Shown here: positions 21,701 to 24,700 of the stretch, one piece after another | How the letters are laid out: the number at the start of each line of letters is the position of its first letter | How positions within the stretch are numbered: position 1 is the stretch's first letter | NCBI GenBank assembly: GCA_007922195.1 | Contig: ML682005.1 | Location: forward strand, 25,889,015 to 25,953,014 | Length of the DNA: 64,000 nucleotides | Reading direction: 5' to 3' | Source: Podocnemis expansa | Taxonomy: Eukaryota; Chordata; Testudines; Podocnemididae | Notes under the pieces: generated by a model | Told to the model about the DNA's origin: nothing | What the model saw: only the letters and a program-made list of their open reading frames with translations | The model's database searches: none | Made by a program: the position numbers and the translations under genes

Positions 21701-24700
21701 GTCTATAAATTTAAAACTAACTCGTTTCCCTTATTGATCTAATGCAGCTCCTGTAATAGTTTTTGACAAAATGACTCTCACCCTTTATAAAACCTCCCCT
21801 ATTCCAACATCTCAAATTTAAAAAAAAAAAAAAGAAAAAAATACTAAATAGTCAGAAGTTTAAATTAAACAACAACAACAAAATTTCATTCAGATTCTGG
21901 CATTGAGAGGAATGACTTCTAAAAGTCAGTCTGTGAGAGTACTTTGTCACTGACCTTGGGAAGCTGGGCCCTAGGAGCTGATTGTCAAGTTTACGGATAA
22001 AGCTGTTTACCTTAAGGTTCTGACTTTTCTAAACAAAAACAGTAATCAGTTCTATAAAATTGATGTTTTTGTAAAGGTTTTAACACCATAGACATACCAA
22101 GGCTTTTAGCATGGTGCCTGCTCTTTGTTTCCTAATTGTCTTTTCCACTGCATATCCACAGTTGCTAACATCCGTGAAACTGAACTAGTGGTAGTAACAT
22201 AGACCTGGGTGCAGAAAACGCCTGAGAGAAAGCATTATATTCTGCACTGGTTCAGGGGGAGTTAAGTTATGTCCTTGTTCCCTAAGGTAACAGTTGATTC
22301 ACAGAATGTCCCCTAAGTGCTGGTGGGGTGTGAGTGAGGCCTTATCCTGATTATCAAGATAAGTAGGTCTGTGTCAGGTTGATTTAGGCCTGGTCTACAC
22401 TTGCCATTGTTTTTGGCAGCGGTCAAAGGGAGATATGCAAGTTGCTTAAAATAACTTGCATCTCTCTCTTTGATTAACTGGTGTCTGCTTACCTCAGTGG
22501 CTCCACTAAGTAGAGTTGAAGGGAAATGCCCTCCCTTGCGGGAGTGGACTCCAGTGGTTGACTTACCGATCAACTGAGCAGGTCTTCACAGGCCCCTCAA
22601 TTGAACCAGGAAGTTTGAACTGACAGCAGCTAATGACATGCCTTTTGTCTCTTTCCTTTTCCCCTGCTCCTCCTCCTTAATAGTTTAAGTCAAGCATTCA
22701 ATCAGCAATTGCTTTGCAATGGCTTGGTCATGTGTTATAGACACTTTGTACTGCATGCATGTGTTGAAGAACATAAGGATTCCTCTACTGGATCAAGTCA
22801 GTGGTCCATTTAGTCCAGAGGTCTCAAACTCAAATCACCACGAGGACTGCACGAGGACTAGTAGAGGGCTGCATGAAGGTTAGTACAGTAGCCCGAGGGC
22901 CGTGCCACTGAAACCTTTCCATACAATGATATTGTAAGTATCAGTAACGATTGTGTCATTGCGGGCCACAGGAAAGAGTTTTAGGGGCCGCATGCGGCCC
23001 ATGGGCTGTGTGTTTGAGACCCCCAATTTAGTCCAGTCTTGTCTTTCATGTAGCTAAAAAATAATTGTTTTCAGTGCTTATATATACTAATGCCAGAAGC
23101 TAAAAGGCTAAAATGGGTGAACTTGACTGCCTCATAATAATGGAAGATAGGGATGTGACAGGCGTCCCAGAAATTTGGTGAAATGAGGATACTCGATGGG
23201 ACCCAGTAATGCCAGGATACAAAATATAGCAGAAGGAGAGAATAGGTCTTACTAGTTTGAGAGTGGCACTATGTGGAAGAAAGCTTGGAGTCAAATGAAA
23301 TAAACTTTAAATGAATCTCTGTGGTTAGTAATTCCACACTTGAATAATAAGAATATGGCAATAGGGATACACTATGAACTACCTGACCAGGATGGTGATA
23401 ATGACCACTGTGAAATGCTCAGGGAGATTAGAGTGACTACAACAATAAAAACTCAATAATAAGGGAGGATTTTAATCATTTCCATATTGACTGGGTACAT
23501 GTCTCAAGGATGGCATGCAGAAGTAAAAAGTTCCTTGACTGCTTCTTGGACCACTTAATCCTGAAACCTACAAACGGAAAAGCAGTTCTTGATTTAGACA
23601 AGTGGAGCACAGGATCTGGTCCAGGAAGTGCATCTAGATCAATTGTTTGGTAATAGTGACCATAATAAATTTTATTATGTTAAATTTAAAGTTATTTTAA
23701 TGGGGGGGGGGGAGGGACAACAATAAAGTAGCCTACCACAGTAGCATTTAACTTGACAAAGTGGATCTACAGAAATGAGGAAGTTAAATAGAAATTAAAA
23801 GATAAAGTGCCAAAAGTGAAATCCCTGCAGGTTGCATGGAAATTTTTTTAAGTCACCATAATAGAAGTTTAATTTAAATGTAAGCTCCCAAACTAAAAAA
23901 AACAAAAACAAACAGTAAAAGGACTAAGGTAGCAATGCTAAAGTGGCTAAAAAACAAAATGAAAGAAGCAGCTAGCGGCAGAGAGGCATCCTTTAAATGG
24001 TAGAAGTTAAATCCTGTTGAGGAAAATAGGTCCATAAACTCCAGCAAGTGAAGTGTAAAAACATAATTAGGCAGGCCAAAAACTGATTTGAAGAACAACT
24101 AGCCAAAGATTCAGAAAGTCACAGGAAAAAAAATTGCAACTGTATCAGAAGCAGGAAGCCTGCTAAATGAGTGGGACCTCTGGACAATGGAGATGGTGAA
24201 GGAGCATTCAAGGAAGACAAGATTATTCTAAGACTAACAGATTTATTTTTTGCATGAGCCTTTGTGGGAGAAGATCCCACTTCCTCAGATGCTTTGAAGA
24301 TGGGTGAACTTACAGAAAAGCATCTGAGGAAGTAGGATCTTCTCCCACGAAAGCTCATGCAAAAAATAAATCTGTTAGTCTTAAAGTGCCACACAACTCC
24401 TCCTTGTTTTTTTACTGGACTAGACTAAGATGGCTATCCTTTTGAAATTGACAAGATTATTCTAGACAAACTAAGTGAATTCTTTGCATTGATCTTTATG
24501 GCTGAGGATGGAAGGGAGATTGCCAAATTTGAGCCGTTCTTTTTAACTGACAAATCTTGAGGAACTGACCCAGATTAAGGTGTCATTAGAGAAGGTTTTG
24601 GAACAAATTAATAGACAGTAAGTAATAAGTCACCAGGACCAGATGGTATCTATCCAAGAGTTCTGATGGTTCTAATTTGAAATTGCAGGACTACTAACTG

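What the first reader, a model, noticed from the sequence alone, without database searches (positions are those of the whole stretch)
24216..24464. Retroposed foldback family whose arms draw as a minimal type I hammerhead ribozyme
Nine copies of a 100-220 bp family are scattered here. The clearest carry target duplications of 15, 11 and 12 bp, which suggests target-primed insertion, not a hAT-type cut-and-paste (8 bp). Many are inverted left and right arms plus a fixed tail. In the right arm at 24320-24360 the order is GCAT, CTGAGGA, extra A, GTAGG-loop-CCCAC, GAAA, GC, TC, ATGC. Read as a type I hammerhead this is stem I (GCAU/AUGC, 4 pairs), the CUGANGA core, stem II, GAAA, a near-absent stem III and a UC cleavage site. 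The copy at 59264-59306 keeps CTGACGA, five perfect stem II pairs and GAAA. The minus-strand arm at 48845-48890 changes stem I to GUGU/ACGC, keeping the pairing. Penelope-like elements are known to carry such motifs with very short stem III and variable target duplications. Against it: an A is inserted between the core and stem II in every copy, and these copies are decayed.
Basis: partly seen in the sequence, partly recalled or inferred. Interest (0 to 1): 0.75.

Follow-up and report, generated by a model that had tools for sequence, protein, structure and literature searches.

The report
Turtle Penelope retroelement ends, hammerhead-like fold
The scattered hairpin-like repeats are broken ends of a Penelope-type jumping gene that is abundant in this (probably turtle) genome, and they carry a conserved RNA shape like a small hammerhead ribozyme with one extra base, so the finding is real but belongs to a known kind.

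Summary
The window has nine copies of the family; several are head-to-head foldbacks, three with clear 12-15 bp target duplications. In the host genome (2.39 Gb) the tail signature occurs 49,826 times. A family copy follows the GIY-YIG endonuclease on the same strand in 29 of 30 fetched loci, and one frame joins reverse transcriptase to GIY-YIG. The hammerhead reading is supported as a fold: a second, far-diverged family keeps the core while 6 of 9 stem pairs change on both sides, and RNAalifold finds both stems unaided. All 107 distinct motif-spanning copies have a nucleotide (A in 102) between core and stem II: the insertion is ancestral, not decay. No Rfam hammerhead matches. AGCU replaces stem III and is self-complementary, which fits cleavage as a dimer. 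Ends fall at two sites about 37 bp apart; 23 of 27 foldbacks pair one short with one long end. Self-cleavage is untested. Minimal Penelope hammerheads are already published; the fixed extra A and the paired-end rule are the points worth testing.

The parts
24216..24230 (.). target site duplication, left copy (15 bp)
   Evidence: exact match to 24450-24464, p 0.0003
24231..24318 (-). left arm: inverted partial element end with its own hammerhead-like motif (about 24252-24292)
   Evidence: row c1L; 86% identical to the right arm
24320..24360 (+). hammerhead-like motif: stem I GCAT/ATGC, CTGAGGA, extra A, stem II GTAGG/CCCAC (one mismatch), GAAA, GC, TC
24361..24449 (+). element terminus: stem-loop and tail
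24450..24464 (.). target site duplication, right copy
44908..45100 (+). head-to-head foldback copy; motifs at 44927-44968 (-) and from 44974 (+)
59240..59396 (+). single-arm copy; motif 59264-59306, CTGACGA, five stem II pairs, one stem I mismatch
15485..15660 (-). single-arm copy; motif 15601-15641; possible 9 bp duplication further out
48815..48988 (+). foldback copy; left arm with stem I GTGT/ACGC; 12 bp duplication at 48803-48814 and 48989-49000
20301..20459 (-). foldback copy with 12 bp duplication (20289-20300, 20460-20471)
14504..14600 (+). decayed foldback copy
39453..39571 (-). decayed copy resembling the GGTGCC (C) subfamily
28349..28470 (-). decayed copy, tail arms only

Best explanation
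The copies are short insertions of the terminal (pLTR) region of a Penelope-like retroelement with a reverse transcriptase and a GIY-YIG endonuclease. Shown: the family sits just 3' of the coding frame; copies end at two sites about 37 bp apart; foldbacks are head to head and mostly combine one short and one long end; target duplications are about 12 bp. Inferred: the element's enzyme makes a staggered cut of about 12 bp, each target strand primes reverse transcription of element RNA at one of two start sites around a conserved stem-loop, and the two truncated cDNAs are joined head to head. Just upstream of that stem-loop lies a conserved RNA fold with the layout of a minimal type I hammerhead: stem I 4 bp, CUGANGA, one extra A, stem II 5 bp, GAAA, GC, U-H. 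It has no stem III of its own; the A-G-C-U there is self-complementary, so two motifs could pair through it and cleave as a dimer, perhaps with help from the element's protein. The fold is shown by covariation between two families; cleavage is inferred from published relatives. The decayed window copies are probably inactive.
For: Tail signature 24,833 + 24,993 exact matches, 0 in the backwards control. GIY-YIG: 5820 candidates, 150 scored, 149 listed as matches, all over the cut-off; of the 30 fetched, 29 have a same-strand family copy 208-362 bp downstream. L089: arms 1107 bp, 99.5% identical, a 676-aa frame ending 135 bp before the motif with RVT_1 E 9.7e-12 and GIY-YIG E 1.3e-6, 12 bp duplication with one mismatch. 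The best named protein relatives are turtle proteins. Covariation on 19 chosen rows: 91.8% of cells paired, 6 of 9 pairs with a change on both sides, covariation score 0.593 reached by 0 of 500 shuffles, slid versions at most 51% paired; RNAalifold returns stems I and II. Strict motif somewhere in 15 of 30 endonuclease loci, two of which overlap and share a copy. 3' ends of 116 distinct arms: 42 at 111-125, 57 at 149-154, 6 between, 11 shorter. One short plus one long arm in 16 of 19 foldbacks, then 7 of 8 in a further sample predicted before it was examined. Target duplication score of 9 or more in 15 of 27 foldbacks against under 1% of random pairs. Published parallels: PMC11167929, PMC3846280, PMC6155905, PMC7761336.
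Against: No Rfam hammerhead match at any threshold tried. The extra nucleotide separates A9 from the first stem II pair, a junction that PMC3088659 required of its hits. Covariation rests on essentially one contrast (families A/C against B), with B rows picked for a readable core; two of the five measures, the number of pairs changed on both sides (249 of 500 shuffles reach it) and further pair types (143 of 500), are not above shuffles, and window-only covariation is not. RNAalifold also adds a pair inside the core. 48 of 107 copies have a damaged CTGANGA, with much change at the two CG sites. In the Anolis element the ribozyme cleaved only with protein present, and inactivating it did not affect insertion in vitro (PMC11167929). 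The long-end peak lies at the end of the search consensus, so its sharpness is partly imposed. 4 of 27 foldbacks do not follow the short-long rule, and 12 of 27 show no significant duplication.
Confidence: 0.88

Rival explanations
1. The fold is conserved but is not, or is no longer, a ribozyme in this lineage: it is a binding or folding element for the Penelope reverse transcriptase, derived from a hammerhead that lost activity through the inserted A.
For: The extra nucleotide is fixed; no Rfam match; Anolis insertion in vitro does not need cleavage (PMC11167929).
Against: The other core letters are kept in the consensuses of two diverged families, including GAAA and a cleavage-site H; a mere binding hairpin would not need them.
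Confidence: 0.25
2. Ordinary SINE or LINE 3' ends moved by CR1 or L1 machinery; the hammerhead letters are chance.
For: Variable duplications and truncations also occur with LINE machinery (general knowledge).
Against: 29 of 30 GIY-YIG loci carry the family; covariation; chance about 3e-6; two-site ends and head-to-head arms match Penelope elements (PMC3846280, PMC11167929).
Confidence: 0.02
3. Foldback DNA transposon (hAT-like MITE) with terminal inverted repeats.
For: Inverted arms in many copies.
Against: Arms mostly end at different sites; single-arm copies are common; duplications are about 12 bp, not 8; reverse transcriptase is linked.
Confidence: 0.01

Closest known systems
Minimal hammerheads of Penelope-like elements (Cervera and de la Pena 2014; Lunse, Weinberg and Breaker 2017; known here only from reviews and reference lists)
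   Same: Type I layout, no real helix III, Penelope pLTR location, proposed dimeric action.
   Different: A fixed extra A between CUGANGA and stem II. Whether the earlier sets include this could not be checked: neither paper is held.
Poseidon of Anolis carolinensis (PAc), PMC11167929, main text read
   Same: RT plus GIY-YIG in one frame, hammerhead near the pLTR junction, two adjacent RT start sites in a stem-loop 111-118 bp into the ORF, both target strands cut and extended, optional 30-40 bp tail.
   Different: There the ORF starts at stem II; here the sequence after the motif has stop codons in all three frames (read directly) and the frame ends about 135 bp before the motif. Here foldbacks pair a short with a long end; in vitro no strand difference in start site was seen.
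Penelope elements of Adineta vaga, PMC3846280, passages read
   Same: Head-to-head inverted pLTRs, optional 31 bp tail on one of them, duplications of 8-10 bp, partial tandems.
   Different: Duplications here are about 12 bp; the word hammerhead does not occur in that paper's main text.
Penelope-2_CPB (named in PMC9004415, passages read; that CPB means painted turtle is recalled)
   Same: A Penelope element named from a turtle.
   Different: Its sequence could not be compared here.

Membership tests
Penelope-like element | Single ORF with reverse transcriptase and GIY-YIG endonuclease | tested here: met
   L089 676 aa and L090 503 aa: RVT_1 and GIY-YIG over cut-off
Penelope-like element | Family under study is the terminal part of that unit | tested here: met
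   29 of 30 fetched GIY-YIG loci
Penelope-like element | Head-to-head inverted pLTR copies | tested here: met
   19 head-to-head, 1 tail-to-tail and 2 tandem neighbours within 300 bp; L089
Penelope-like element | Optional 30-40 bp tail | tested here: met
   ends at 111-125 (42) and 149-154 (57) of 116; 11 and 12 of 29 in a further sample
Penelope-like element | Short target site duplications | tested here: met
   15 of 27 foldbacks, matched stretches 10-16 bp
Penelope-like element | Complete unit with pLTR at both ends, in tandem | tested here: inconclusive
   only partial tandems seen (L042, L054, L109); complete 5' ends were not found or fetched
Penelope-like element | Telomerase-like RT in a Penelope tree | not tested
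   no tree built
Type I hammerhead ribozyme | Core CUGANGA and GAAA | tested here: met
   consensuses A and B (B partly recalled but borne out by rows); in single copies 59 of 107 and 66 of 107 intact
Type I hammerhead ribozyme | Stem II directly adjoining A9 (no insertion) | tested here: not met
   one nucleotide inserted in 107 of 107 copies, A in 102
Type I hammerhead ribozyme | Stems I and II paired, with compensatory change | tested here: met
   6 of 9 pairs between families; RNAalifold
Type I hammerhead ribozyme | A15.1-U16.1 pair and stem III | tested here: inconclusive
   only AGCU is present (87 of 107 copies; 4 of 7 B rows); it can pair only between two motifs
Type I hammerhead ribozyme | Match to curated hammerhead models | tested here: not met
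Type I hammerhead ribozyme | Self-cleavage after H17 | not testable with these tools
   needs a bench assay
hAT-type DNA transposon | 8 bp duplication and equal terminal inverted repeats | tested here: not met

The most novel reading that the evidence does not exclude
A hammerhead variant with an obligatory extra A after A9 works only as a dimer through an AGCU/AGCU stem III, kept over deep Penelope divergence; and each insertion is a paired reaction in which the two target strands prime at two different start sites, giving one short and one long end.
Probability: 0.35. Interest if true: 0.6.

Novelty: new member of a known kind. Interest (0 to 1): 0.42.

Why it matters
One review calls the activity and role of Penelope hammerheads in vivo still a mystery (PMC7761336, passages read). 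This genome offers tens of thousands of ends of one family, a second diverged family for comparison, a fixed core insertion that can be assayed, and a simple rule for how the two ends of an insertion form. Together these make the ribozyme question and the integration model directly testable.

Tried and rejected
Rfam at gathering level on the window, and at E up to 10 on the window, on two short stretches and on 8 loci, gave no hammerhead; the listed hits are mostly miRNA-like palindromes plus a partial tRNA and other weak matches. Window-only covariation was not significant. Scans of viral contigs and genome contigs for two signatures and of phages and plasmids for one window copy found nothing. 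Cofolding two whole strands gives an extended duplex, not a double hammerhead; the needed contact is a pseudoknot that this program does not draw. Planned genome counts of motifs without the extra A and of further families did not complete. Paper searches that combined hammerhead, Penelope and turtle found none; I make no claim that this is unpublished.

Corrections and dropped rows: the notebook entry says 28 of 30 endonuclease loci; rechecking strands gives 29 of 30, L030 lacking a near copy. L040, L073 and L079 overlap neighbours and were left out. L038 and L058 lie inside L091 and L090 and had been counted twice; one search recounts without them (118 to 116 arms, 109 to 107 copies), and the ratios hardly change. 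43 of the 107 copies come from loci chosen for their endonuclease. Rows of the covariation alignment were my choice: 9 A and 3 C copies, and 7 B copies with a readable core out of the hits; the other hits were dropped. The 20 further places follow the list with two left out (C1:1904210 and C1:2637071); for two of them the list already showed a close pair.

Full report
Observation. The nine copies, the foldback arms, the target duplications and the hammerhead-like order of elements are in the sequence. Corrections: stem II of the 24320-24360 copy has an A.C mismatch, stem I of the 59264-59306 copy has a C.A mismatch, and the three clearest duplications are 15, 12 and 12 bp. A loose hammerhead pattern gives three hits in the window, all in this family, against 0.1 per shuffled window. 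The strict pattern is absent from the window but present in the family consensus, where chance is about 3e-6.

Origin. The window lies in an assembly of 2.39 Gb. The tail signature has 49,826 exact matches there and none in the backwards control. A GIY-YIG search found 5820 candidates; 150 were scored and 149 passed. In 29 of the 30 loci fetched, a family copy lies on the same strand 208-362 bp downstream of the endonuclease match; the exception is L030, whose nearest downstream same-strand copy is about 1.2 kb away. L089 is a young-looking head-to-head insertion: its arms of 1107 bp are 99.5% identical, and its frame of 676 aa carries RVT_1 and GIY-YIG. Among 3643 protein relatives (best 120 listed, 7990 candidates scored), the eight best are all named from turtles, and turtle entries in the list run from about 62 to 77% identity; more distant entries come from echinoderms, sharks, amphibians, ticks and others. 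The host is therefore most likely a turtle, by inference. RT plus GIY-YIG in one frame is the architecture of Penelope-like elements (PMC11167929).

Fold. Besides the window family (A) and a sister subfamily (C), the genome holds a second family (B), found with a recalled signature: 366 exact matches, none in the control. In two B loci, L069 and L074, Penelope endonuclease fragments lie upstream of the B copy on the same strand; their longer pieces are 27-30% identical to the L089 protein, so A and B parted long ago. On an alignment of 19 chosen rows, 91.8% of cells pair, 6 of 9 pairs show a change on both sides, no shuffle reaches the paired fraction, the number of changed cells or the covariation score, and slid structures pair at most 51% of cells. 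The number of pairs changed on both sides and the number of pair types are not above shuffles. RNAalifold returns stems I and II without being told, plus one pair inside the core. The consensus core CUGANGA, the extra A, GAAA and GCU stay the same while the stems differ. This is one evolutionary contrast, and B rows were picked for readability, so it shows the fold rather than measuring its strength. Inside the window alone there is no significant covariation.

The extra A. Of 107 distinct copies spanning the motif, none lacks the inserted nucleotide; it is A in 102 (the first count had two copies twice). It is therefore ancestral to the family. Decay is strongest at the two CG sites of the motif (positions 33-34 and 53-54 of the consensus), as expected from methylation. 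PMC3088659 (section on core variants and other passages read) shows that some core insertions lower activity and others may be tolerated; none described there is at this place. Rfam models do not recognise the motif.

Stem III. Between GAAA and the cleavage site there is only GC, so a single motif cannot form stem III. A15.1-G-C-U16.1 is self-complementary, is intact in 87 of 107 A-type copies and is the commonest form among the B rows, 4 of 7. Amphibian type I hammerheads with a single-pair helix III and a palindromic loop need dimers to cleave well (PMC7229834, passages), and Penelope hammerheads are reported to do so (title of Lunse et al. 2017, seen in the reference lists of PMC7761336 and PMC6466107; the paper is not held). 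I infer the same here.

Ends and integration. Of 116 distinct arms, 42 end at consensus positions 111-125, 57 at 149-154, 6 between and 11 earlier. The difference of about 37 bp matches the optional 30-40 bp tail of Penelope elements. The consensus ends at 154, so the sharpness of the second peak is partly imposed, but target duplications in window copies place real ends there. Neighbouring copies within 300 bp are head to head in 19 cases, tail to tail in 1 and tandem in 2. In 16 of 19 foldbacks one arm is short and the other long. I wrote this down as a prediction in the same turn as the next fetch and before examining it: 7 of 8 foldbacks agree, and the eighth is 139/122. Target duplications score 9 or more in 15 of 27 (under 1% expected), with matched stretches of 10-16 bp; the other 12 show nothing significant. 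Between the two ends lies a stem GTTAGTCT/AGACTAAC: 549 of 597 cells pair in 76 A arms. In B it reads GTTGGTCC/GGACCAAC, two compensatory changes, with 98 of 138 cells paired in 18 rows. In the Anolis Poseidon element both strands are cut and extended and synthesis starts at two sites in a stem-loop (PMC11167929, main text read). The paired short and long ends here suggest that each insertion uses both sites, one per strand; PMC3846280 (passages read) already notes a tail on one of two inverted pLTRs.

What is shown and what is not. Shown: Penelope origin, conserved hammerhead-like fold, fixed insertion, two-site ends. Inferred: dimeric cleavage, protein help, the order of events in integration. 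Not shown: any self-cleavage. I file the family as a Penelope-like element, and the motif as hammerhead-like rather than a canonical hammerhead, because the uninterrupted junction of core and stem II was tested and not met.

Noticed in passing
window 20352-20444, 24257-24355: Foldback copies score as pre-miRNAs in Rfam (MIR8675 E 3.6e-6, mir-1684 E 3.3e-4, both below gathering score), a trap for miRNA annotation.
   Followed up: partly
window 17271-17328 +: Partial tRNA-like match (29.9 bits against a gathering score of 29, E 0.034; not listed by the gathering scan); ARAGORN finds no tRNA. Possibly a tRNA-derived SINE.
   Followed up: partly
window 14829-15284 - and 18022-18853: GC-rich stretches with longer open frames, one containing MALRYLLLSRG; may be first exons at a CpG island.
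   Followed up: no
G000 C3:1819212/1821640, C27:3219296/3220494, C45:23914510/23916323, C9:8005070/8005740, C31:6861177/6862182: Five close pairs of GIY-YIG matches, each minus then plus: head-to-head insertions large enough to include the endonuclease.
   Followed up: partly
L005 416-588: A foldback matched by the B consensus on both strands (E 8e-12 and 4e-11), a diverged B-like copy near A copies.
   Followed up: no
L072 around 1922: A family B core follows directly on the end of a family A tail, perhaps a nested insertion or template switch between the two families.
   Followed up: no
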